From Muribaculaceae bacterium (GTDB lineage: Bacteria; Bacillota; Clostridia; Lachnospirales; Lachnospiraceae), in the NCBI GenBank assembly GCA_023663465.1, contig JAMPHJ010000012.1, forward strand, positions 1 to 42,760: a stretch of DNA of 42,760 bases, written 5' to 3'. Below are positions 438 through 22,833 of the stretch, piece by piece. The stretch's first letter is position 1; each line of letters begins with the position of its first letter. Position numbers and translations under genes: made by a program. The notes under the pieces are model-generated. The model made no database searches and was not told the origin of the DNA. It saw only the letters and a program-made list of their open reading frames with translations.

Positions 438-515
438 GAAAAAACAACATGGGTATACTCTACCCTTTGTATGTTAGTGCAACTTTTAAATCTTAAAGGA
501 GGAGAAAAGAGAAGT

Positions 516-3500
516 ATGAAGAAAGTAGTTAAAACACTAAAACAATCACTTTCTATCTTGCTCGCTGTAGCAATGGTCATTACTTGTGTCCCACAGACAA
601 CAACTTCGGTGCTTGCAGCCCCGGACGAGGACGTTACTGCGGAAACAGGTATCGATACGGACGCCCAGGAAATAGAAACGCCCGTTTCCACACCTGACAC
701 AAATTTGACATCGGATGACGCATCGGGCGACGATACGGAAGAATCTACGGAAGGAGGAGAAACCACTGACCCGGAAGAGGGTGGCGAGACGATTGACCCA
801 GGAGAAGGCGGAGAGACTACTGAGCCAGGCGAAGGTGGCGAGACGAACGACCCGGCAGAGGGCGGAGAGACGACTGACCCAGGAGAAGGCGATGAAACTA
901 CCGATCCGGCAGAAGGCGACAATACAGTCTATACCGTAACCTTCCCGACGCCGGAAGAAGATCATGCGACCGTTACGATAAAAGGCGGCGCAGAAAAGAA
1001 TGAGGAAACTGGCGCATGGACAGTAATCAGCGATACAGACATCACCTTTACGGTAACACCTGTTACGGAATATGCAGTTGACGCCGTAAGTTATACCGTA
1101 GGCGGAGAGAAAGAAGTTACCCTTACTGCAGCAGAGGGTGAAGCAGACGCAGAAGCTGTTTATACAATTCCGAAAGATGCCATCACAGGTAATATCGTTA
1201 TCAAGGTAACGACGAAAGCCGTGGAGGCAAAAAACATCACCCTGACCCTCAAAGACTACACAGATAAAGAAACTAACAAATTTGAAGTGTTTCCACTGAC
1301 AAAAGTAGAGGGAGATGGATACAACAGTACATATAAAAAAGCAGATACAGCAGTTACTGCGGATGGTTGGACTGTTGAAAAAGGTCAGGATGTCTTTTTT
1401 ATCGTGGAAGCAGACGAGAGATATAATGTGACCGTAGAATCTGCGAATGGCAGCATTCCGCAACAATGCGTACGGTTGTCTGAAGCCAAAGAATATGCAT
1501 GGGCTTATTATGTAGGCGATGTGTCTGCGGATACGCAAATCACAGTTACTTTAGAGGTAAAACAAAATAAGAATAGCGGCGCATACTGGGCATCTTTCAC
1601 GAGTGCAGTGGATGCAACCTACGATATATCAACAAATGGTAACAAAACTCCCAATTTAACTGATACCAGTGTAGAAAAGAAGCGAGTTATTACCACATTA
1701 GAAGATATCACTTACACAATAACACCGAGGGCTAATTATCGGGTAGAAAAGGTAGAAAAGATTATTGATGAAGAAACTGAGCCTGAGCCGCTGGAGGATA
1801 TCGACAGCGACGATACTACCTTCACTTTCGCCGGAAAATTCAGCCAGGACGAAAAAAGCGTGACATATCGTGTAACCGTTACAGCCATACCATTAACGGA
1901 AGACGGCGGCACGATTACTTTCAAGCAGGATGATGTAGCAACCGGCTTGACATTAGACGTTACGCCGGCCGGCGTAGAAGCAACTTCTACCGAGAATCAA
2001 TATCAGGTAAAGAGCGGCGCTCAATACGTTGAATTTGCATTGACGGCTGCTAATACAAGTATTGCGCCGGTGGTTATCGTAGGCGGGGACGAAGAAGAAT
2101 GGCCTGCGGAAAATGCGGAAGAACGCGAGGATACAGACCCTTATCTGTATAAGGTGCGTGCGAGCCGTTTCACAGCGGGCACCAATACGGATATTTCCAT
2201 CAGCCAGAAAGCGGCTCCTAAGACGCTTACCATAGTAAGCAATGAGGAATATTTTGAACGGTTGGCGGTGGCTGTTACCGGCAAAGAAGATACATGGAAC
2301 TTCGGTGATGGTGATGGATATTACTTGTACGATGATGATGATGAAATTATAGGTTATTATTGGAATTGTACAATCCCGGCTGGCTCTGAAGTTACTATAG
2401 ATGCTGAGGCAGATAGCCGGCATAAGATTGCATCTTATCAGATTGGCAGCGGAGCAGTCCAGACAGTAGATGACAAAAATGCTGCAATAACGTGGACGCT
2501 TACAGACCATACGACAGTAGACATCACTCAGGCGGACGCGCCGTATGTCGCCGAACTGAGATTAGGAGACGGTTATGACGGAACGCTGGTAGAAGCCGTA
2601 GAAGACGGCGTATATTCTGTTAACAATGGTCAGACTTATACGATATTAATGAATCGCGGCGGTGAACAGGAATATCTGGAGAAAGCAACAATAACTCTCG
2701 CAGATGGAACAGTATGCGCCTCGACTGTAACAACAAATTCAACAACAAAAGCTGCAGTTACCGTATCCGCAGAGGATGCGGGCAAAGAGCTGCTCGTAAG
2801 CGTATGGTCTGATAATGATGCATGGGAGGATGACCACGCTCCTTCTGTAACCCTCAGGCTAAAAGTCAAGAATGCTATTGGCACTGCAGCTACCCAAGCA
2901 ACTGTTACTGGTGTTAAAAACGGGGAACTCACACAGACTGTAGACACCAGACAGACTTATGAGATAAAAGTAGAACCTGCGGAAGCAGATGCAGATAATC
3001 TGAATGCAGTCGTTGAATGGCCTGAACAGGCGACGAATACAGATAAAGAGACAGTAAAAGCAGTGATAGTAGACGGCAAACTTGTTATCACTACTGCTCC
3101 GGTTCAGAACCAGGCAGCGATAGATGCACTCAATGAATTGGCGCCTAAAATCAGTCTGAAAGGGACAGGGGATGCTTTAACAACATTTACATTGATTCTT
3201 GAAGCTCCCAAGGCTTTAACAGGTTTAACCCCTACTCTGAAGCTGAAATCTTCTAATGATATCAGCCTGACGCTGACACTCGGCGTTCCGGCGAAGGTGA
3301 ATCTGCCAGTCAATAAAGGCAAGCTATGGTATAAAGTAGTCGTAGAGCAGAAGGGAACTGATACTGTAACGGGTAATGACATCGCAGAAGGGGGAAAAGC
3401 AACCTATTATATTGAAAAAATAGCAGATAAAGCAACACAAGATGAAACAATTCAACTAATTAACAGAGAGTTTGGAAGCGGCGTGGCTTGCAACTTTACA

Positions 3501-6500
3501 GTAAATGCAACAGTCGTACAGACAATCGATAAAACTGATTTGAACAAATTAACAGAAGCGGCAATAGCAGGCAAAATTGCATTTGAAAGTAAAGCGAAAA
3601 GCGTCAGCGCAGCTACCAAAACACCTTATTACGCAACCAAACTGACCCTAAAGAAGGGCACGACCAATGTTTATACGGGCATGGAAGGCGTTAAGATTGC
3701 TACGATAAACTTTGGCAAAGATGCAACTTATACGGATGATAATACTGTTACCGTAGAAGATGTAACAACGGGGGTTACGACAATCCCCAAAGAGGCATTC
3801 AAAGTAGAAGGCGGAGACGTCAAGATAACGTTGAATGGTGATACGCTGGATTGGGATGACGAGGGCTTTTTAGATGCCGCTATCGGCAAACATACCATCC
3901 GTGTAACGGCAGATGCGCCGTCAGATGTAACACCGGCACATGCGGATATCGTTATCACACTAAATCGTGGTATCGAAACGTTCTACCTGACCTATGCATC
4001 CGATACGATTTGGAAACCGACGGGTAAAGCGGTTTCCTTAAAGGGAACTCCGACTTATAACTGGAATGAATCTCAGTACCAGCCCAAAACCAAGAAAGTA
4101 AAAGACTACGTTCTTGTAAAGGCTGCGAAAGATGAGAATGGAATTTATAGTCCGGCGAAAAAGAGCGATGGCACAGACGATATCCTGGAAAACATTCAGG
4201 GACTGTTCATCAATACAAAGAACGGCACGATAAGCGTAACCAAAGACTATAATGTGACCGGGACAGACCAAGACAAATTCTTCGTAAGGGCAACCTCTGC
4301 TGACTGGACTGACAAAGCATCAGGCACAAGCAGCAGCGTACCCGGCTATTCTCAGTTGATTACGGTTACAGGTGCGGCGCTAGAGCTGGGCGAAGTAGTT
4401 GTTGTAGGCTGGGATAATGAAAACGGCGGTTATTATATACCGATTCTCGGCGGCAGCGCTAAGAATGTAACTTCTGAAAAACTCTCTGACGCTAAGGTTG
4501 CCGTATTGAAACCGGGTATTACAGCAAAAACAGAGGGCGTTTATAGCGCAGATAATTTTGTAGATTCAGGCTATTTGTCCTATAAGTCCAATAGCAAAGC
4601 GTTAACAGTCGATAAAGACGGTTTGGTAAAAGTAACTAAGGCGAACCCTAAGGCTAATATCATCCTTACGGTTTCCAACAATGACGGCTCCAAAAAGTCC
4701 GCGCAGCTTAAAGGGATTAGCATTGGTTATGAAACGCCAGACCTCGGTCTGAGAGTGGAACGTCAGAATGCGTGGGCTCGCACTGGCGAGGATGAGAATT
4801 TCCAAAGAATCGGCGGAACCGATTACGGATATAAAAACAGCACGATATCCTATAATGCAGCGAGCGACAGCGTTTTACGGCTTGTCGTATTGGAAAAGGA
4901 AGGGGAGGATGAAAATGGAAAGGCATTCTATGAACCCATACATTCCTATGCGAACTATACAATCGCTGTAAACGGCGCAAAGGTACTAAGTAAAACGACT
5001 GACGCATATGGACAGTGTTATACTACCATCCTGCCGAATAAAAAGGACGTTACCGTTACCCTGACGGATAAAGGGAACAACCTGCGCAAAGTTACCTATA
5101 CCATTACCAACACAGGATTTAGCCCGGCGACAATTGCCGCTAAAAATATCAAGACAACGGATAAGCTGACAGCGGGCGTTAACCAGCATCAGGAGATTCG
5201 TTACAACGTAACCAATCTGCCGGACTCTCTGGTGAGCGTATGCGAAGAAGAGCAATTATACGTCATGGTGAGAACCGATGCAACAGACCGCCGCAATGCT
5301 AAGAAGGCTTCTAGTTATGCAACATTTGAGCAAGCAGGTAACGTAATCGACTGTATTGCGGTAGAGCCTTATGAGTACCAGGTAAAGAAGGGTAAAAATA
5401 CCGTGACCATGACAGGCGGTACTTTCGTTTTGAATTTCAACGAGGCAGTACCTGCAGGCAGCTATAAACTACAGCTTACTTTCGGTACAGCCAATAACGA
5501 TAGTAGCTACGAAAATGAAAATTACAACGAAATCCAACCGTTAACGAAAGCGGTAGCAGTTACCCTCAAGGCAACGGCAGTCAAGAAAGGTTCTTATAAA
5601 CCTGTTACGACAGTCAAGATGTCTGTAAAAGATATGCCGCAGGTAACGCTTGCTGGAACCGGGAAAAATTATGATAACGAGTGTTATTATAATTTGCGCA
5701 ATGCGAATCTAAAAGGCGTATCCAATGGCTTTACAGATTATTTTGAAGCGGTTTATGAAAAGGATAGCGACGGCGAGGATACCGATACCGTTGTTGCCTT
5801 AAAGTTAAAAGATTTTGAAGCAATCAGGCAGTTACTGGCACAGGAACAAAAGAAAGAAGCGAAAGACATCACAGATAATGAGGTCAATGAAAGACTCGAC
5901 TGGCTGACCGGAAATACCAAGAACAAAAACGCCAAAGGACTGACTTCCAAAGACGTCCGCACAGGCTACATCAGCTATGAAGTTTATAACTTGGATGGCA
6001 CGCTCTTAAAACGCGACGTGACAAAACTTACCGTAAACTTCACCAGCGCGACAACTGACCTTGCGAAAGTAAAATCCGTAAGCGCGTATGCAGCAGCCGG
6101 CGTCAAGATTATGGAAGGCACCAAGAATGCGGAGCTTCATGTTACCGCAGCTAAGAAACCGGCAGATATCGCTTATGCTTATGTAGCGACGAATGACGGC
6201 GGATTTGAGGTGGCTAAGGTAGAAGGGGATACCATTAGCCTTGAAATAAAAGGAACACCTGCAGTAAAAGGTCACAAACTTACACTGTATGTAGTTCCGG
6301 CGAACAGCTACTATGTATCAGAAATTAGAAATCTAGCGACGGCTGCTGAAAAAACCGATTTTGTCGATGCTATCACAACAAAAGGCGTGAAACTTACACC
6401 GACAGTTACGGTTGTAAGGAAGGCGACCGGTAAAAAAGTAACTGTTGCAAAAGCAAACCTGAAACAGACATTTGCAGTAAACAACGAAGATGGTTTGCGC

Positions 6501-8243
6501 GGCTATGATGGTCAGAATGCTAACTATTGGATTGACGTCCCTTACACGATGAATGTGGGTGGTGTGCACATTGTCGATAAGATTGTTACTACTGTCAAAG
6601 ATACGAACAATCAAAACAGTACTGAACTGATTAACTGCTATCCAAATTATCAACGCGGTGTGGAGGATGGTGGAAATTACATCGGTATTTCCATAAACAA
6701 GGCAGATATCAATAAGGTTAAATGGAGTAAGAATGGAACTGTTCAGGTCAAAGCCGAGCTGCCTTTCGGTATGCTAAAGAAAGAAGAGCTAAAGGATAAC
6801 GATTGGTACGATGAAGATTTGACCATTACGAAAGAAACTCTTACTTTCACACTGACAAGACCCAAGGAAGTCAGCCATGAAAATAATGTAAAGAATGTGA
6901 AAGAAAATATAGAAAAGATTGCCACAGCAGTGGAAAAAGAAAAGAAACCAGCATTCTGGAGGGATATGCATATCAATGTGTCCAATTATGTAGCCCAGGA
7001 TAACATGTATTATCTCCATGAGATCCAGTGGGAAGATAGACAGGAAGTGCATAATGACTTATTCGACAGTTTCACGGAGGCAATCTGGATGGTACACGAC
7101 ATCATTACAGAAATGTATGTGCTGGAAGACAGCACAAGCGTAGAGATGCCACAGTTCCAGACTTGGAGGGGAGAGAATCAGTACACTGAATGGCTGGCAT
7201 TGTCGGGCGAGGACTTCACACTACCTACGCTCACGACGAAAGGGAAATTTACCGTACAGGTAGAATTGAAAGACCCCGACAAGCCCGAAACAAAGGAAAT
7301 TGTTAAGATTCCGCTGACTATCGACACTCTCAAAGAACAACCCAGCGATGTAAAAGACGCTCTTGAAACCTTCGTAGAAGAAGTACAGAGCAGAAACCTT
7401 TATAACTTACGTTCCAATACTGCTGATTACGACAAGATTGCTAGGGCGGCAAGGGATTATATCAAGTTAAGCGGATACCCGACACTGAGACTGGATGTAT
7501 GGGATCCTGAAAGGGATGAAAAGGGTGAGCACAAGGGTATGTTCTATCTAGACGACTTTGGCTGGGTGAGTGAGACCAGACAGGAAGCTACTGAGGAGGA
7601 AGACGGTTATATTGCTGCACTGCTCCACGTCTACGGCAGCAGATATGGCGGACAGGAAGTGTTTGTACCGTTTACCATCATCATTCCGAAGCTCAATCCA
7701 GAGGTTGAAGACCTGAAAGCAAAACTGGATGGCATCGTTGAAGCTAATCTGACCAAACTGGAAGGAATCGACGGTGTAAATGATGTTACATACGACCGCG
7801 ATAGAAATAAGTTTACGGTTACTGTAACGGATGACCCGAAGAAAGTGGTAGACTACTGCGAAACATGGAAGAAAGCAAATGAAGAGGCTTATAAGAAAGA
7901 ACTTGTAGATAGTCTCACAGAAGCCTTCGGAAAAGAATGGGAGTCTGTAAGCGGGATTACTGTCAATGCGAAAGCATTTGCGACAAATCCGCTGACGGCA
8001 ACAGATATTGAAAAAGAGATAACAGTATCTGTCACGAAACAGAGTGGTGAAACAATCGAAGCTTTTGCCGACAGAATGCAGAAGGAAGCTGAAAAGAAAT
8101 ATGAAGCGGCGCTGAAACGCTATCCTGATGCAAAAGATGTTGTTTTCCCGGCATTACATGGTGCAACCGGAAATGTAAACATCACTGTTGCTTATATAGA
8201 TGCAACAAGCGTATCGCAGGCATACCTTTTAACAGTAAAATAA
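516..8243 (+). CDS. Giant secreted surface protein, 2575 aa, unknown function
   Basis: The start at ATG 516 is chosen because AAAGGAGG lies at 495-502; the in-frame ATG at 471 has no ribosome site. Residues 1-35 form a signal peptide: basic KKVVKTLKQ, hydrophobic LLAVAMVI, and a VLA-A cleavage region. Residues 36-79 are acidic and Thr/Asp-rich, and residues 80-133 are six 9-residue units of the GGETTDPEE type. The remaining ~2400 residues are Thr/Lys/Val-rich, beta-like sequence resembling stacked Ig-like modules (TYTITP, FTVTVT, VTITL patterns), with more helical stretches near residues 2150-2250 and at the C-terminus. I see no LPXTG motif, SLH domain or C-terminal membrane segment, so retention at the surface is unexplained. 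No enzymatic motif was recognised. It precedes the capsule locus but has its own promoter. Confidence 0.85.
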   Translation: MKKVVKTLKQSLSILLAVAMVITCVPQTTTSVLAAPDEDVTAETGIDTDAQEIETPVSTPDTNLTSDDASGDDTEESTEGGETTDPEEGGETIDPGEGGETTEPGEGGETNDPAEGGETTDPGEGDETTDPAEGDNTVYTVTFPTPEEDHATVTIKGGAEKNEETGAWTVISDTDITFTVTPVTEYAVDAVSYTVGGEKEVTLTAAEGEADAEAVYTIPKDAITGNIVIKVTTKAVEAKNITLTLKDYTDKETNKFEVFPLTKVEGDGYNSTYKKADTAVTADGWTVEKGQDVFFIVEADERYNVTVESANGSIPQQCVRLSEAKEYAWAYYVGDVSADTQITVTLEVKQNKNSGAYWASFTSAVDATYDISTNGNKTPNLTDTSVEKKRVITTLEDITYTITPRANYRVEKVEKIIDEETEPEPLEDIDSDDTTFTFAGKFSQDEKSVTYRVTVTAIPLTEDGGTITFKQDDVATGLTLDVTPAGVEATSTENQYQVKSGAQYVEFALTAANTSIAPVVIVGGDEEEWPAENAEEREDTDPYLYKVRASRFTAGTNTDISISQKAAPKTLTIVSNEEYFERLAVAVTGKEDTWNFGDGDGYYLYDDDDEIIGYYWNCTIPAGSEVTIDAEADSRHKIASYQIGSGAVQTVDDKNAAITWTLTDHTTVDITQADAPYVAELRLGDGYDGTLVEAVEDGVYSVNNGQTYTILMNRGGEQEYLEKATITLADGTVCASTVTTNSTTKAAVTVSAEDAGKELLVSVWSDNDAWEDDHAPSVTLRLKVKNAIGTAATQATVTGVKNGELTQTVDTRQTYEIKVEPAEADADNLNAVVEWPEQATNTDKETVKAVIVDGKLVITTAPVQNQAAIDALNELAPKISLKGTGDALTTFTLILEAPKALTGLTPTLKLKSSNDISLTLTLGVPAKVNLPVNKGKLWYKVVVEQKGTDTVTGNDIAEGGKATYYIEKIADKATQDETIQLINREFGSGVACNFTVNATVVQTIDKTDLNKLTEAAIAGKIAFESKAKSVSAATKTPYYATKLTLKKGTTNVYTGMEGVKIATINFGKDATYTDDNTVTVEDVTTGVTTIPKEAFKVEGGDVKITLNGDTLDWDDEGFLDAAIGKHTIRVTADAPSDVTPAHADIVITLNRGIETFYLTYASDTIWKPTGKAVSLKGTPTYNWNESQYQPKTKKVKDYVLVKAAKDENGIYSPAKKSDGTDDILENIQGLFINTKNGTISVTKDYNVTGTDQDKFFVRATSADWTDKASGTSSSVPGYSQLITVTGAALELGEVVVVGWDNENGGYYIPILGGSAKNVTSEKLSDAKVAVLKPGITAKTEGVYSADNFVDSGYLSYKSNSKALTVDKDGLVKVTKANPKANIILTVSNNDGSKKSAQLKGISIGYETPDLGLRVERQNAWARTGEDENFQRIGGTDYGYKNSTISYNAASDSVLRLVVLEKEGEDENGKAFYEPIHSYANYTIAVNGAKVLSKTTDAYGQCYTTILPNKKDVTVTLTDKGNNLRKVTYTITNTGFSPATIAAKNIKTTDKLTAGVNQHQEIRYNVTNLPDSLVSVCEEEQLYVMVRTDATDRRNAKKASSYATFEQAGNVIDCIAVEPYEYQVKKGKNTVTMTGGTFVLNFNEAVPAGSYKLQLTFGTANNDSSYENENYNEIQPLTKAVAVTLKATAVKKGSYKPVTTVKMSVKDMPQVTLAGTGKNYDNECYYNLRNANLKGVSNGFTDYFEAVYEKDSDGEDTDTVVALKLKDFEAIRQLLAQEQKKEAKDITDNEVNERLDWLTGNTKNKNAKGLTSKDVRTGYISYEVYNLDGTLLKRDVTKLTVNFTSATTDLAKVKSVSAYAAAGVKIMEGTKNAELHVTAAKKPADIAYAYVATNDGGFEVAKVEGDTISLEIKGTPAVKGHKLTLYVVPANSYYVSEIRNLATAAEKTDFVDAITTKGVKLTPTVTVVRKATGKKVTVAKANLKQTFAVNNEDGLRGYDGQNANYWIDVPYTMNVGGVHIVDKIVTTVKDTNNQNSTELINCYPNYQRGVEDGGNYIGISINKADINKVKWSKNGTVQVKAELPFGMLKKEELKDNDWYDEDLTITKETLTFTLTRPKEVSHENNVKNVKENIEKIATAVEKEKKPAFWRDMHINVSNYVAQDNMYYLHEIQWEDRQEVHNDLFDSFTEAIWMVHDIITEMYVLEDSTSVEMPQFQTWRGENQYTEWLALSGEDFTLPTLTTKGKFTVQVELKDPDKPETKEIVKIPLTIDTLKEQPSDVKDALETFVEEVQSRNLYNLRSNTADYDKIARAARDYIKLSGYPTLRLDVWDPERDEKGEHKGMFYLDDFGWVSETRQEATEEEDGYIAALLHVYGSRYGGQEVFVPFTIIIPKLNPEVEDLKAKLDGIVEANLTKLEGIDGVNDVTYDRDRNKFTVTVTDDPKKVVDYCETWKKANEEAYKKELVDSLTEAFGKEWESVSGITVNAKAFATNPLTATDIEKEITVSVTKQSGETIEAFADRMQKEAEKKYEAALKRYPDAKDVVFPALHGATGNVNITVAYIDATSVSQAYLLTVK
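753..914 (+). repeat. 27-bp tandem repeat coding for an acidic GGET(T/I/N)DP linker
   Basis: Six consecutive 27-bp units encode nine-residue repeats of the form GGETTDPEE / GGETIDPGE / GGETTEPGE / GGETNDPAE / GGETTDPGE / GDETTDPAE (residues 80-133 of the giant protein). The units are in frame and multiples of three, so copy-number change would alter linker length without a frameshift. The antisense reading also stays open, which explains the Ser/Pro-rich reverse-strand ORF here; that ORF is a by-product of the repeat. Confidence 0.85.
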
Positions 8244-9975: not shown

Positions 9976-10845
9976 ATGGCAAATAGTATAGCATTTCAAA
10001 ATCTTGAAAAACAGACCTACGCCAGACGGGAAGCTTTCAATTCCCTGCGGACCAATTTGCAGTTTTGCGGTGTAGATAATAAAGTCATCATGTTTACAAG
10101 CTGTACCCCCGATGAAGGGAAAAGTACGGTGACAATGGAGCTGGCAAGGTCTTTAAATGATGACGGAAAAAAAGTAATTCTGGTGGATGCCGATTTGCGC
10201 AAATCTGTTTTCGTCGGCAGATATCGTATTCGTTCTGAGGAAACCATTTTCGGACTGTCCCATTACCTTTCTGGGCAGAAAAAAATGGAAGAGGTCATCA
10301 ATACCACCAATATCGAGAACTTGGATATGATTGTCGCCGGTCCCGTCGCACCTAACCCGACGGAGCTGCTGGGCAGGGAACTATTCATCAATCTGCTCGC
10401 CACCCTTAAAGAACGCTACGACGTGGTCCTAGTGGACTGCCCGCCCCTTGGCTGGGTTATCGACGCCGCGGTTGTGGCACCAAATTGTGACGGAGTGGTC
10501 CTGGTAGTGGAAAGTGGAACGATTAGCTATCGTTATCTTCAGGACGTCAAAAAACAACTTGAAGTAACCGGTGTCAATATTCTGGGTGTCGTACTCAATA
10601 AAGTAAAAGTACAGGGCGGCGGCTACTATAACCGTTACTATTCCGGACACTACAAAGGCTACTATAAAAAATATGGCAAATACGGATACGGCAAGTATGG
10701 GAAATATGGCAAATACGGAGAGTATGGACAGTACGGTCAGTATGGCGAATACGGCACAGAGCTGGATGAATCCCTGCAAGGGAGCCTAGGGGAAGGCAAC
10801 CTTTCGGATAGTTCCAATGAAAAACTCCGGGGGGGGGCAAAATGA
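9976..10845 (+). CDS. cpsD: CpsD/CapB-family bacterial tyrosine autokinase (BY-kinase)
   Basis: This cytoplasmic P-loop kinase autophosphorylates on a C-terminal tyrosine cluster and controls Wzy-dependent polymerisation with its membrane partner. The BY-kinase motifs are in order: Walker A SCTPDEGKST (residues 42-51), Walker A' ILVDADLRKS, and Walker B VVLVDCPP. The tail at residues 217-259 carries 17 tyrosines in a Tyr-Gly-Lys/Glu/Gln repeat, far more than the few tyrosines usual in streptococcal homologues. The final codons run through nine consecutive G residues (10829-10837) to give RGGAK and stop. Loss of one G would instead extend the protein by 20 residues and end it in a TAG overlapping the GTG of the next gene by one base. 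The annotated stop may therefore be one phase state. Confidence 0.93.
   Translation: MANSIAFQNLEKQTYARREAFNSLRTNLQFCGVDNKVIMFTSCTPDEGKSTVTMELARSLNDDGKKVILVDADLRKSVFVGRYRIRSEETIFGLSHYLSGQKKMEEVINTTNIENLDMIVAGPVAPNPTELLGRELFINLLATLKERYDVVLVDCPPLGWVIDAAVVAPNCDGVVLVVESGTISYRYLQDVKKQLEVTGVNILGVVLNKVKVQGGGYYNRYYSGHYKGYYKKYGKYGYGKYGKYGKYGEYGQYGQYGEYGTELDESLQGSLGEGNLSDSSNEKLRGGAK
10829..10837 (+). repeat. G9 homopolymer at the 3' end of cpsD
   Basis: Nine G residues lie four codons before the cpsD stop. In frame they encode the C-terminus RGGAK. With G8 the reading continues as RGG-QNDPALNFDQLYHIVRK-EKK and stops at TAG 10898-10900 (window coordinates), one base overlapping the downstream GTG at 10900. 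With G10 it ends RGGGKMTLH. Tracts of this length are prone to slipped-strand mispairing. A base-calling error is the main alternative. Confidence 0.75.
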
Positions 10846-10899
10846 CCCTGCACTAAATTTCGACCAGTTATACCACATCGTAAGGAAGGAGAAAAAATA

Positions 10900-12294
10900 G
10901 TGAAAGAGCAGCATATCAGAAATCGAAACAAAAAAACCAATTTTACCCGGATATCTTGTCTGGCAATTGAAATCTTACAGCTTATGATCTTTGGATATGT
11001 CTGGATTTTTTACTATAATACGTTTGCCTTCCGAACCCACCGTATCACCGGCGGAATCATTTCTTTGCTGCTTTACTATATCCTTTACGGAAGGCTGACA
11101 AGAATTTACCGGGCGAATAAAATCGCACACTACTCCATCGGCGAAATCGTTTTTTCCCAGCTCCTTGCTTTTGGGATAACGGATTTGATTTTCTATGTGG
11201 AATGCTGTTTTATCGCCCGCAGATATGTGTCCATCGTTCCGGGACTTTTTACCGTAGTCATACAATTTTTGGCTGCTTGTATCTGGGCGCTTCTGGCGAA
11301 GCGGTATTATATGAACCATATTTCACCCCAGGATACCGTTGTCATATACGGGGATGAGAGCGTAAAAGGATTCCTCAGGAAGATGGAAGAAAGACCCAGC
11401 CATCTTTTTAACATCAACAAAAAAATCTCTTCCGGTGAGAAAACAGAAAAGCTCTACGCGGCAATCGATGCCGCCGAGGTCGTCATCCTCTATCAGACCG
11501 ATTACCAGCTGCGGGAAGAGTTAATGCACTACTGTATCAACCAGAAAAAAGTGTTCTATGTAACGCCTACCATTACGGATATCATCGCCAGCGGCTTTGA
11601 AAACAGGCATTTCATAGACAGCCCCCTGATGAAGTACGATTGCTACAGAGAATCCCTAAGCATGGAATTTATCAAAAGAAGCATCGATATCGTAGTATCC
11701 CTGTTCGGGCTGATTATCTCACTGCCGATTACGTTAGTTACCATGCTGGCAATCAAGTTAGAAGACGGCGGCACAATCTTTTTCAAACAGGAACGCTACA
11801 CGAAAAACTGGAAGAAATTTAAGATACTCAAGTTCCGAAGCATGGTCATGAATGCGGAAGAAAACGGCGCGCTTCTCTGCAGCGCAAACGATAGCAGAAT
11901 CACGAAAGTAGGAGCCGTCATCCGACGATTCCGCATCGACGAGATTCCCCAGCTCCTCAATGTCCTAAAAGGAGACATGTCTCTCGTCGGTCCCCGTCCG
12001 GAGCGGGTGGAAAACACGGAAAAATATACGGAAGAACTACCGCAGTTTGCATACCGGCTGCAGGTCAAAAGCGGGCTGACAGGGTATGCGCAGTTGTATG
12101 GAAAGTATAACACGTCCGCTTACGACAAGTTGAGGTTAGATTTGATATACATAGAAAACCGAAGCCTGATTCTGGATATGAAGCTGATCATGCTGACCTT
12201 GAAGATCCTGTTTATTCCTGAGAGTACGGAAGGGTTTAGTGAGGAGGCGGTGCAGTTGATGAGGGTGGAGGTGGATAAGAGACAGGCGGTGTGA
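10900..12294 (+). CDS. Initiating sugar-phosphate transferase (polyisoprenyl-phosphate hexose-1-phosphate transferase)
   Basis: The enzyme transfers a sugar-1-phosphate to undecaprenyl phosphate to start the polysaccharide repeat unit at the membrane (WcaJ/CpsE type). The 464-residue protein has about four N-terminal membrane segments (residues 15-135), a middle region, a further membrane helix near 262-285, and the Bac_transf catalytic core. Core motifs visible are FFKQERYTKNWKKF, KFRSM, RRFRIDEIPQLLNVLKGDMS, LVGPRPE and SGLTGYAQLYG. The start is GTG at 10900 with AGGAAGGAG about eight bases upstream. It is the last gene with the GC content and codon use of the conserved control block; sequence after it turns AT-rich. 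Sugar specificity (galactose or glucose) cannot be told from sequence. Confidence 0.92.
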   Translation: MKEQHIRNRNKKTNFTRISCLAIEILQLMIFGYVWIFYYNTFAFRTHRITGGIISLLLYYILYGRLTRIYRANKIAHYSIGEIVFSQLLAFGITDLIFYVECCFIARRYVSIVPGLFTVVIQFLAACIWALLAKRYYMNHISPQDTVVIYGDESVKGFLRKMEERPSHLFNINKKISSGEKTEKLYAAIDAAEVVILYQTDYQLREELMHYCINQKKVFYVTPTITDIIASGFENRHFIDSPLMKYDCYRESLSMEFIKRSIDIVVSLFGLIISLPITLVTMLAIKLEDGGTIFFKQERYTKNWKKFKILKFRSMVMNAEENGALLCSANDSRITKVGAVIRRFRIDEIPQLLNVLKGDMSLVGPRPERVENTEKYTEELPQFAYRLQVKSGLTGYAQLYGKYNTSAYDKLRLDLIYIENRSLILDMKLIMLTLKILFIPESTEGFSEEAVQLMRVEVDKRQAV

Positions 12295-20230: not shown

Positions 20231-20644
20231 ATGACTATCGGATATACAACAGGAGTCTATGATCTTTTTCATATAGGACATGTTAATTTGTTAAAAAATG
20301 CCAAGGGGATGTGTGACAAACTGATTGTAGGAGTAACTGTAGATGAATTAGTAACTTATAAAGGAAAGCATGCGATGATACCATTTAAAGATAGGATTGA
20401 AATTGTAAGAAGTATCAAATATGTTGATGCAGCAGTACCGCAGTATGATATGGACAAACTTTCGGCATGTAAAAAGCTGGGAGCGTCAGTTTTGTTTGTG
20501 GGAGACGACTGGTATGCAACAGATAAATGGAAAGTATACGAGGAGGAGTTTACGAAAGAGGGGGTGAAAATAATTTATTTTCCGTATACGAAGGGCGTTT
20601 CATCAACACAGATATCTAAGGCTTTGAACTCGGTTAGAGAGTAG
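20231..20644 (+). CDS. tagD: Glycerol-3-phosphate cytidylyltransferase
   Basis: This small nucleotidyltransferase makes CDP-glycerol from CTP and sn-glycerol-3-phosphate. GVYDLFHIGHVNLL contains the HxGH catalytic motif (HIGH), and the nucleotide-binding signature appears as YTKGVSSTQISK near the end in place of the RTEGISTT form. VGDDWY and VPQYD are further conserved elements. The length of 137 residues is typical. It follows the CDP-glycerol transferase directly and has an AGAGGAGG ribosome site about ten bases before its ATG. The local pairing of TagD with its user enzyme means the CDP-glycerol is probably consumed in this locus. Confidence 0.93.
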   Translation: MTIGYTTGVYDLFHIGHVNLLKNAKGMCDKLIVGVTVDELVTYKGKHAMIPFKDRIEIVRSIKYVDAAVPQYDMDKLSACKKLGASVLFVGDDWYATDKWKVYEEEFTKEGVKIIYFPYTKGVSSTQISKALNSVRE

Positions 20645-20670
20645 AATTGTTTAAGGAAAGGGATAATATT

Positions 20671-20877
20671 ATGGTAAATAAAAAATATTGCATGAGTTCT
20701 TTTTTGATGTTTAGGACAATCGCGAATCATGAGATGGCTTTTTGTGAGGAGCTGCCACCGAATTTTTATGTGGATAAAGGGAAAAAAGAGCAGATACATA
20801 ACAGTTTTGAATTGGAAGAGTCTCTTAGACGTCAGATAGAAGAAGCAAAGTTTTTGGATTTATGTGAGAATAAATGA
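20671..20877 (+). pseudogene. 68-aa peptide resembling the N-terminus of an asparagine-synthase-like protein; probably a gene fragment
   Basis: The start at ATG 20671 is supported by AAGGAAAGGG at 20653-20662; the frame also extends back to a TTG. The peptide (KYCMSSFLMFR near its start, SFELEESLRRQIEEAK near its end) resembles from memory the N-terminal segment of asparagine-synthase-like ATP-pyrophosphatases found in polysaccharide loci, which would normally continue into an SGGMDS loop. Here it stops after LCENK with no such domain following. It could instead be a genuine small protein. The resemblance could not be tested here. An imperfect hairpin (GCTTCCA 20879-20885 / TGGAAGC 20910-20916) follows. 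Confidence 0.4.
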
Positions 20878-20968
20878 TGCTTCCATAAGGCATTTTATCT
20901 TACATATTGTGGAAGCCTTTCCGTAGAATTAGCAGGCAAGGCGCTTCATACTTTTGGGAGGAACTCTT

Positions 20969-22076
20969 ATGGAAAAAAGAGAAGATAATTATGATTTGCT
21001 TAGAATTATATGCGCTGTTGCAGTGATCATGATACATGTAAGTGGAAGATGGTTTGTAAATGCTATCAATGATATTGCGGAAAGAGGCTTGTTTATAGAG
21101 GACATATTACATCCATTTTGGATTTGTATATATGATTCGATTTCAAGATTTGCCGTTCCGTGTTTTGTAATGCTGTCGGGAGCATTTATTTTAGATAATG
21201 AAGAGAATATCGAATATAAAGAATTTTACTCTAAAAATTTTTCTAAAATTGGCATTCCAACGATTGTATTCAGTATTCTGTACATCTTATATCAAATACC
21301 GATTTGTCTGTGCGTTGAGAATAAAGGTATTGGCACCTTAATGATCAGTGTTATACAAGGACGCCCGATGTATCATATGTGGTATCTGTATATGCTCATA
21401 GGGCTATATGCCTTGGCGCCAATTGTTATACGTTTTAAAAATAGTATTCCAGAGGAAAATTTTTATAAAATTACCTTTGTATTTTTGATATTAGCAAGCA
21501 TCAGCATGTGGACAAGCAACGACATATTAGCGTGGGATGTTGGAAGTTCCTTTGAATATCTTGGATATTTTATGGTTGGATATAGCATTCGGAAAATTAG
21601 TGCGGGGGGGGGGTAAAAATAACAGAAAAGCGCTACTCTCAGTGCTGATAGGAATATTACTTGAATTTTGTGTAGCAGGATTGAAATATCAACAAATGAC
21701 AGCAGGGATTGCAGAAGCTGAATTGGAATACAGTATTGTAGGATTAAGTAATTCACTTATTGTTTTAGCATCGATATTAATTTTCTATGGCTTTACGGTT
21801 TTAGATATGAAAAAAGATTTGAGGAAATTATCAAGTTTAACTTTTTGGATATATCTTATTCATGCAGGAGTGTGGGATTTTATTCATAAAGTAATCAGGC
21901 TGGTAAAAGGGATGGATGTATTTACCAAAATGGATGGAGCGATATGGATTCCGGTATTCGTAATAGTCGTGTTTGCTGTTTCTTGTGTGCTGAGCAAATT
22001 ATACATATGGCTGTGGGGAAAGCTTGATAAGGAAAAGAGGATTACAAACAAATTGTTGCGGATAGTGCATTTATAA
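20969..22076 (+). CDS. Acyltransferase-3 family membrane O-acyltransferase, split by a G10 tract (phase-off allele)
   Basis: Acyltransferase-3 proteins are integral membrane enzymes that move acetyl or other acyl groups to extracytoplasmic sugars. The N-terminal half starts at ATG 20969 (GGGAGG at 20956-20961) and shows the signature NYDLLRIICAVAVIMIHVSG and later FAVPCFVMLSGAFIL. It ends prematurely at TAA 21614-21616, straight after ten Gs (215 residues). The other half (KNNRKALLSVLIG to KLDKEKRI and beyond) continues in the +1 frame to 22076 with FWIYLIHAGVWDF, the usual C-terminal family segment. Removing one G joins both halves into 368 residues with no other change, the normal family length. 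The sequenced allele is therefore off, or this is a base-calling error in the homopolymer. Confidence 0.85.
21604..21613 (+). repeat. G10 homopolymer inside the acyltransferase gene (phase-variation candidate)
   Basis: Ten consecutive G residues. The upstream frame reads AGT GCG GGG GGG GGG TAA, a stop. With nine Gs it reads AGT GCG GGG GGG GGT AAA AAT and enters the downstream half in frame. G9 and G12 would be on; G10 and G11 off. Confidence 0.85.
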
Positions 22077-22174
22077 GTGAGATGACATCGTGGCGGCAAA
22101 CAGGCGGCAATACCACATCTAAATGAGCGATATAACAGGAGTGTAATCATGGCAGAAATACGAGGATAACCACA

Positions 22175-22801
22175 ATGCAAATGCAGACTGCCACAACAAT
22201 ATTATCCACAGTACTTGACGATTGCAGGATATATTTGAATGAATATTTTTATGATGCTTTATGCGCGGGAGCAGTATTGGCATTTCTCTACTGCTCTATT
22301 TCCTTGTGCCAGTTTCTTTTTATGCGGAAGAACTCCAGACATGACTTTTTATATTTCATTCTAAAGGCGCCCTTTGTGGCATTGCTAGGCTTTTACTGCT
22401 ATATGGTTCTTGGCATAACCATTTTATCCAGAAATGAACGTGATATATATATTATCCTGTTAACACCCTTCAGTACATGGGGTTTAAATCCTAAAAATCT
22501 TACATTCTGGATAGAAAATATTCTTATGATGATTCCGCTTGGCATTTTGCTTTACATATTATGGAAACCTTTTCGCAAGATTGGCTGGCTATTGCTTTCA
22601 GGATTCCTTTTCAGCTTGTTGATTGAGTGTATCCAGCTTGTGTCGCGGCGGGGAAAATTTGAAACAGACGATATTATGAATAATGTGTTTGGTATGCTGC
22701 TTGGATTTGGATTATGTAGGGGGATGGAGTGGATATATGGGGTGGCAGGTAAGATGCTTTATGCTTATGTGAGGAACTCTTATAGAAAAAAGAAAAAATA
22801 G
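22175..22801 (+). CDS. VanZ-family membrane protein
   Basis: A 208-residue protein with about four to five membrane helices. VanZ-family features are visible: LGITILSRNERD, an NLTFWIENILMMIPLGILLY segment, FLFSLLIECIQLVSRRG and FETDDIMNNVFGMLLGF. VanZ-like proteins are associated with glycopeptide (teicoplanin) tolerance in a few cases, but most members have no known role; here it follows polysaccharide genes. GAGG lies about ten bases before the ATG. Its final 10 or so codons coincide with a direct repeat of the acyltransferase ribosome site and start codon, suggesting the 3' end was shaped by recombination. Confidence 0.85.
   Translation: MQMQTATTILSTVLDDCRIYLNEYFYDALCAGAVLAFLYCSISLCQFLFMRKNSRHDFLYFILKAPFVALLGFYCYMVLGITILSRNERDIYIILLTPFSTWGLNPKNLTFWIENILMMIPLGILLYILWKPFRKIGWLLLSGFLFSLLIECIQLVSRRGKFETDDIMNNVFGMLLGFGLCRGMEWIYGVAGKMLYAYVRNSYRKKKK
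22771..22793 (+). repeat. Direct repeat of the acyltransferase start region, in the 3' end of the VanZ gene
   Basis: Bases 22771-22793 match 20958-20980 at 22 of 23 positions (GAGGAACTCTTAT shared exactly, one mismatch, then GAAAAAAGA). In the first copy this is the ribosome site and start codon (ATG) of the acyltransferase; in the second the ATG is ATA. The following bases still read E-K-R-K-N-S-F-D-V-V-L against E-K-R-E-D-N-Y-D-L-L-R, so the second copy is a decayed remnant of another acyltransferase start. Confidence 0.65.
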
Positions 22802-22833
22802 TTTTGATGTAGTTCTGGCAAGCGAAAAATTGG

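What the first reader, a model, noticed from the sequence alone, without database searches (positions are those of the whole stretch)
20969..22076. G10 tract switches a capsule-locus O-acyltransferase off: predicted ON at G9
The acyltransferase-3 gene is intact in two halves that meet exactly at ten consecutive Gs (21604-21613). With G10 translation stops at TAA three bases after the tract; with G9 the halves fuse into 368 residues, the normal family length, with all conserved segments. The break at the only long homopolymer, with no other damage, fits slipped-strand phase variation of sugar acylation, a known mechanism in pathogens but little described in gut Clostridia.
Basis: partly seen in the sequence, partly recalled or inferred. 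Interest (0 to 1): 0.75.

Follow-up and report, generated by a model that had tools for sequence, protein, structure and literature searches.

The report
Poly-G tract splits capsule-locus acyltransferase gene
In a bacterium of a family common in the gut, a run of ten Gs splits a gene for a probable sugar-decorating enzyme, and some relatives carry dozens of such runs, many in sugar-modifying genes, which suggests that they reshuffle their surface coats by DNA slippage as Campylobacter does.

Summary
In detail: an Acyl_transf_3 gene lies in two frames that meet inside a G10 tract (21604-21613); no other damage was seen. The 3' half keeps the identity and codon-position pattern of a living gene. 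It is not the only long tract: a G9 ends the capsule kinase gene (10829-10837), and a 91%-identical orthologue in another species has G11 there. Relatives make slippage the best reading. The genome has 12 G8, 16 G9, 2 G10 and 1 G11 tracts; a relative, G095, has 78 tracts of G9 or longer and few G6-G8. In nine G9-rich genomes of the genus, 27 of 68 Acyl_transf_3 regions carry a G7 or longer tract, at many places. Among 59 regions that a local model could read, 7 of 22 with a tract are split there, against 1 of 37 without. This resembles the published Campylobacter phasome, but in Lachnospiraceae, for which my searches of an open-access library listed no report. Switching itself (mixed tract lengths in one population) could not be tested. 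Verdict: a likely phase-variable acyltransferase, part of an apparently unreported, lineage-specific poly-G repertoire.

The parts
20969..21616 (+). 5' half of the Acyl_transf_3 (PF01757) gene, ATG 20969 to TAA 21614-21616; GGGAGG ribosome site at 20956-20961
   Evidence: 60-67% identity to L009, L010, L011
21604..21613 (+). G10 tract, proposed slippage site; lies where homologues have the short stretch between GYSIRKM and KNN
21614..22076 (+). 3' half of the same gene in another frame, to TAA 22074-22076
   Evidence: codon-position pattern of a constrained gene
9976..10845 (+). CpsD-like tyrosine kinase ORF (AAA_31), stops just after the second tract
10829..10837 (+). second poly-G tract (G9); orthologue in G024 (L224) has G11 at the same site
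10838..10900 (+). conserved C-terminal tail of CpsD in a frame not read at present; ends overlapping the GTG start (10900) of the next gene
   Evidence: NFDQLYHIVRKEKK here, DFDHLYQTVRKENKR in L224
8317..20641 (+). Wzx/Wzy-type capsule locus: CpsB, Wzz, CpsD, sugar transferase, GT4, Caps_synth, GT2, Wzy-like, hexapeptide protein, Wzx, Glyphos_transf, CTP_transf_like
   Evidence: Pfam, (Wzy_C and Hexapep below their cut-offs)
22745..22808 (+). 81%-identical copy of the start of the acyltransferase gene (20932-20995), probable remnant of a second copy

Best explanation
The gene at 20969-22076 encodes a membrane acyltransferase of family PF01757 that probably O-acetylates (or otherwise acylates) the capsule made by the adjacent Wzx/Wzy locus. 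Replication slippage at the G10 tract changes its length and moves the downstream part of the gene in or out of frame, so a population is a mixture of cells with and without the modification; the assembled consensus is an out-of-frame form. It is one member of a genome-wide set of poly-G contingency loci, which some lineages of this Lachnospiraceae genus have built up much further, often in surface-glycan and surface-protein genes. Shown: the split at the tract, a constrained 3' half, the G8-G11 excess, tracts at other places in homologous genes, frame splits concentrated at tracts. Inferred: slippage rate, reversibility, capsule acylation, and selection (phage or host) as the reason.
For: Split exactly at the tract. 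3' half 61.5-65.3% identical to intact homologues, with substitutions by codon position of about 0.3/0.18/0.59; 5' half about 0.25/0.16/0.52. Own genome: 19 G7, 12 G8, 16 G9, 2 G10, 1 G11, not a steady decline. Relative G095: 9 G7, 5 G8, 69 G9, 9 longer; in a 720 kb sample partly chosen around tracts 379 G5, 10 G6, 4 G7, 1 G8, 50 G9. Nine G9-rich genomes: 27 of 68 Acyl_transf_3 regions above the family cut-off carry a G7 or longer tract in or beside the match, 23 of them an exact G9, where 1.4 would be expected for 59 such regions. Of 59 regions read by a local model, 7 of 22 with a tract change frame there, 1 of 37 without (P 0.003). Frame calls: own G9+ tracts 6 split of 9 (5 of 8 in the subset) against 45 of 2061 random sites; G095 7 of 37 (6 of 26) against 75 of 1988. 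CpsD orthologues carry G9 and G11 at the same site.
Against: No variation in tract length within one species or sample was seen; one genome per species is held. The genome is a draft of 182 contigs, 86% complete, so the G10 could be a consensus error by one base. In the own genome only this one of 11 Acyl_transf_3 matches has a tract: seven others have no G7 or longer, and the contigs of the last three have no G8 or longer. The two closest homologues, L009 and L010, and the partial L012 have none in this gene. With 16 G9 the own genome is 14th of 77 in its genus, well below the nine relatives used; its G8 tracts are mostly in open frames (6 of 7). A/T runs of 7 or more in G095 are also called split in 9 of 104, above the random rate.
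Confidence: 0.8

Rival explanations
1. A recent ordinary pseudogene: a one-off frameshift fixed in this strain, at a homopolymer simply because such runs mutate often.
For: One sequence cannot separate an OFF allele from a fresh, fixed loss; the own genome has one tract among 11 acyltransferase-3 matches. Loss without slippage does occur: L217 is split without any tract.
Against: 3' half still constrained; seven own genes are split at tracts while A/T runs of 7 or more give 0 of 31 in the own genome; homologues carry tracts at other places, some open, some split.
Confidence: 0.1
2. Assembly or sequencing error: the true tract differs by one and the gene is simply intact with a long tract.
For: Homopolymer lengths in a draft genome are the least certain calls, and in a mixed population the consensus is arbitrary.
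Against: The split pattern recurs at tracts in other genomes. Even if true, a long in-frame G tract in the gene would still be a candidate slippage site, as in L011, L060 and L061.
Confidence: 0.06
3. The out-of-frame gene is expressed by transcriptional slippage or ribosomal frameshifting at the G run, so the DNA length is not a switch.
For: Homopolymers can cause polymerase slippage (recalled); nothing here excludes a small amount of full-length product.
Against: Tract lengths differ between cpsD orthologues (G9 and G11) and some tracts lie before genes, a few apparently in promoter spacers, where recoding cannot act.
Confidence: 0.04

Closest known systems
Campylobacter poly-G phasome (PhasomeIt, PMC6321876; section 16 read, other passages seen)
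   Same: Poly-G on the coding strand (5% poly-C there; here 1 of 28 tracts in acyltransferase-3 regions), modal length 9 (53%) then 10 (26%), most in ORFs, 5-81 phase-variable genes per strain, several SAM-dependent methyltransferases in its table
   Different: Campylobacterota; here Lachnospiraceae drafts with variation not measured; a MutS_I match is present in all 21 genomes tested
oafA of nontypeable Haemophilus influenzae (PMC6479036; passages seen)
   Same: Phase-variable O-acetyltransferase of a surface glycan, switched by repeat length
   Different: GCAA tetranucleotide repeats, lipooligosaccharide, a pathogen
Neisseria SSR contingency genes (PMC5084427, PMC5953494; search listing and start of abstracts only)
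   Same: Multi-locus phase variation by simple repeats; PMC5953494 covers commensal as well as pathogenic species
   Different: Gram-negative; another phylum; a genus that includes pathogens

Membership tests
Poly-G contingency locus (phase variation by slipped-strand mispairing) | Homopolymer of about 8 or more in a coding or promoter region | tested here: met
   G10 at 21604-21613 inside the gene
Poly-G contingency locus (phase variation by slipped-strand mispairing) | Frame changes at the tract and both parts are intact | tested here: met
Poly-G contingency locus (phase variation by slipped-strand mispairing) | Tract lengths over-represented genome-wide with a preferred length | tested here: met
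   sharp in relatives, weaker in the own genome
Poly-G contingency locus (phase variation by slipped-strand mispairing) | Length of this tract differs between orthologues | tested here: inconclusive
   Shown for the cpsD tract of the same locus (G9/G11); for the acyltransferase, homologues have tracts at another site or none
Poly-G contingency locus (phase variation by slipped-strand mispairing) | Mixed tract lengths within a clonal population, reversible switching | not testable with these tools
   No reads and one genome per species
Acyl_transf_3 (PF01757) | Match to the curated model above cut-off | tested here: met
   5' half 95.8 bits, cut-off 31; 3' half alone 25.3 bits, below the cut-off, covers positions 212-325 of 326
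Acyl_transf_3 (PF01757) | Acyl transfer to a surface glycan | not testable with these tools
   Inferred from position after the capsule genes

The most novel reading that the evidence does not exclude
Some Lachnospiraceae have independently evolved a Campylobacter-like phasome: up to about 80 poly-G switches per genome, with a preferred length that differs by lineage (G9 in some, G8 in others), placed in reading frames, before start codons and in promoter spacers of genes for glycan methyl- and acyltransferases, lipoproteins and DNA methylases. This would make repeat-driven multi-locus phase variation a property of gut commensals in a phylum where it is not described, testable directly in metagenomic reads.
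Probability: 0.7. Interest if true: 0.82.

Novelty: new member of a known kind. Interest (0 to 1): 0.7.

Why it matters
A 2025 review of phase variation (PMC11868660, passages seen) names as a major question why multi-locus phase-variable genomes seem restricted to pathogens, with database bias as one possible reason (commensal Neisseria are a known exception by the title and abstract of PMC5953494). Lachnospiraceae genomes with tens of G9 tracts, many in surface-glycan genes, are a new kind of counter-example candidate, and metagenome reads can test it. If true, surface acylation and methylation of gut commensals would vary within one host, with possible consequences for phage sensitivity, antibody binding and strain typing, and some 'pseudogenes' in such genomes would be OFF alleles.

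Tried and rejected
Loss of mismatch repair as the cause of the tracts: a MutS_I (PF01624) match is present in 21 of 21 genomes tested, tract-rich and tract-poor alike; a simple loss of MutS is rejected, weaker repair is not.

Phage origin of the locus: no match of window 20231-22400 in the phage collection; plasmids were not searched.

A structural model of an intact homologue, to place the tract in a loop, was poor (mean pLDDT 39.6) and is not used. A first-order Markov expectation over-predicts G5-G8 runs, so I lean on the length distribution itself.

My first codon-score classifier was weak on AT-rich glycan genes; replace it. It leaves many tracts without an open or split call on the G strand: 16 of 31 in the own genome (one of them open on the C strand) and 41 of 78 in G095 (one of them split on the C strand). 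It-4% of random sites split, and 9 of 104 A/T runs in G095.

My first count of tracts in acyltransferase-3 genes used a local model that missed several divergent genes; one search recounts from the Pfam matches: 72 of 79 matches, those above the family cut-off, merged into 68 regions (two of the 68, on L211, look like pieces of one gene). The split counts still rest on the local model (59 regions besides the window). Pfam pieces on L211 and L220 also meet at a tract but were not classed by it.

Promoter-spacer tracts in G095: 4 of 78 against 0.88 in shuffles, 5 of 300 shuffles as high; suggestive only. For the own genome 1 of 30, with 85 of 300 shuffles as high.

Ten of 77 genus genomes have 25 or more exact G9; I followed nine and left out G030 (31).

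Full report
The window is the whole of contig C33 of a draft genome (G000, 182 contigs, 86% complete). The isolate name suggests a rabbit source; the genus was not named by any search. The capsule locus runs from CpsB (8317) to a cytidylyltransferase (20641), with Wzz, CpsD, an initiating sugar transferase, glycosyltransferases, a Wzy-like protein, Wzx and a Glyphos_transf protein. The acyltransferase follows it.

Observation. The gene at 20969-22076 is in two frames that meet in G10 at 21604-21613. Intact homologues exist: L009 (68% over the 5' half), L010 (67%), L011 (60%); a genus search at E<=1e-20 finds homologues in 5 genomes of 77 besides the own. The two halves abut against these with nothing missing. 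The 3' half is 62.7, 65.3 and 61.5% identical to L009, L010 and L011, the 5' half 67.8, 66.8 and 61.5%; both show the low-second, high-third position pattern of a constrained gene. dS is saturated or nearly so, so no ratio is claimed.

Tracts in the same gene elsewhere. L011, L060 and L061 carry G9, G10 and G9 at one shared place before the conserved xGxPxYHxWYLY-like stretch, all open. L009, L010, L059 and the partial L012 carry none; L062 has one only upstream of the gene. In nine G9-rich genomes of the genus the Pfam search gives 79 Acyl_transf_3 matches. The 72 above the family cut-off form 68 regions: 27 carry a G7 or longer tract within the match, 130 nt before it or 60 nt after it, 23 an exact G9; of 28 tracts 27 are poly-G on the coding strand. 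From the genomes' density 1.4 exact G9 would be expected in 59 regions. A local family model read 59 of these regions besides the window's; tracts lie from 60 nt before to 831 nt after the start of its match. Seven of its 22 with a tract (L115, L137, L169, L180, L207, L210, L221) change frame at the tract; of 37 without, one does (L217) (P 0.003). In the own genome only the window's gene, of 11 matches, has one.

Genome-wide. Exact run counts in the own genome are 19 G7, 12 G8, 16 G9, and two G10 and one G11. G095 has 9 G7, 5 G8, 69 G9 and 9 longer. In 720 kb of it, partly chosen around tracts, there are 379 G5 runs but 10 G6, 4 G7 and 1 G8; nine arbitrary 20 kb stretches hold 129 G5, 1 G6, 1 G7 and none longer. 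In the genus, 39 of 77 genomes have 0-5 exact G9, ten have 25-81, and the own 16 ranks 14th (my count of its rows). Some lineages prefer G8: G020 34 G8 and 2 G9; G007 54 and 6. Across 299 family genomes of 298 genera, 165 have any exact G9; by my reading seven exceed ten, the own genome among them and G245, of another genus, with 105 in 1.6 Mb. So a high load is sporadic and lineage-specific.

Frame state. With one codon-based classifier, own tracts of G9 or more give 6 split of 9 with a call and G8 tracts 1 of 7; G095 tracts give 7 of 37. In the subset used beside the controls the figures are 5 of 8 (own) and 6 of 26 (G095), against random sites 45 of 2061 and 75 of 1988, and A/T runs of 7 or more 0 of 31 and 9 of 104. 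Fisher P for the fuller sets against random sites: 1e-8 and 5e-4. Own genes split at a tract include an MBOAT acyltransferase (L104), a BspA-type LRR protein (L101) and a Big_2 protein (L099).

Gene content. The 78 tracts of G095 gave 73 ORFs to scan (one duplicate, one of 29 aa and three short C-strand ORFs dropped). Of these 9 match Methyltransf_11, 5 FkbM methyltransferase, 5 Acyl_transf_3, 4 CotH, 4 HATPase_c and 2 N6_N4_Mtase. Of 120 control ORFs from nine arbitrary stretches (120 of 132 found; the rest dropped for the size limit), HATPase_c and MBOAT have two members each and none of the other families named has two or more. Fisher tests that allow one control member give P = 0.0008 for Methyltransf_11 and 0.03 for Acyl_transf_3.

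Second candidate switch in the same locus. The CpsD-like kinase ends just after G9 (10829-10837). Its orthologue in G024, 91% identical over residues 1-277, has G11 at the same site and also ends just after it. In both, another frame encodes a conserved tail (NFDQLYHIVRKEKK; DFDHLYQTVRKENKR) that ends overlapping the start of the next gene. A motif scan of the more distant CpsD relatives L225-L252 found no such tail. This is direct evidence of a length difference at an orthologous tract.

Comparison. The length peak at 9, coding-strand bias, methyltransferase content and numbers per genome resemble the Campylobacter phasome (PMC6321876). A phase-variable O-acetyltransferase is known in Haemophilus (oafA, PMC6479036). 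A survey of 99 prokaryote genomes found poly-G of 7-8 over-represented in only 9 (PMC2831843, passages). Searches pairing phase variation, homopolymer, contingency loci, slipped-strand or poly-G terms with Lachnospiraceae, Clostridia, Clostridium, Clostridiales, Blautia/Roseburia or gut terms listed no paper on poly-G switching in Lachnospiraceae. Two of these lists were capped (20 of 48 papers, 15 of 118), and subscription papers are largely not in that library.

Limits. Switching was not observed; the exact length of the G10 rests on one draft assembly; capsule acylation is inferred from position and family.

Noticed in passing
window 10829-10900: G9 at the 3' end of the CpsD-like kinase gene; orthologue in another species has G11; a conserved Tyr-containing tail lies in a frame not read at present and overlaps the next gene's start.
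   Followed up: yes
window 22745-22808: 81%-identical copy of the acyltransferase gene start at the end of ORF 22175-22801, probably what is left of a second acyltransferase gene.
   Followed up: partly
L141 near 6285, L082 1502, L086 1502 (G095): G9 tracts between -35-like and -10-like hexamers, all three with 19-base spacers; possible promoter-strength switches.
   Followed up: partly
L122, L141 (G095): Tracts directly after what look like lipobox cysteines (LAGC-GGG, TAC-GGG); motif recalled, not tested.
   Followed up: no
A1 members (G095): Two tract-bearing ORFs match N6_N4_Mtase DNA methylase, possible phase-variable methylation regulons.
   Followed up: no
G245 (another genus of the family): 105 exact G9 tracts in a 1.6 Mb, 68% complete genome: the highest exact-G9 count among the genomes searched; it also has 50 exact G7.
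   Followed up: partly
window 471-8243: ORF of 2590 codons without any Pfam match.
   Followed up: no
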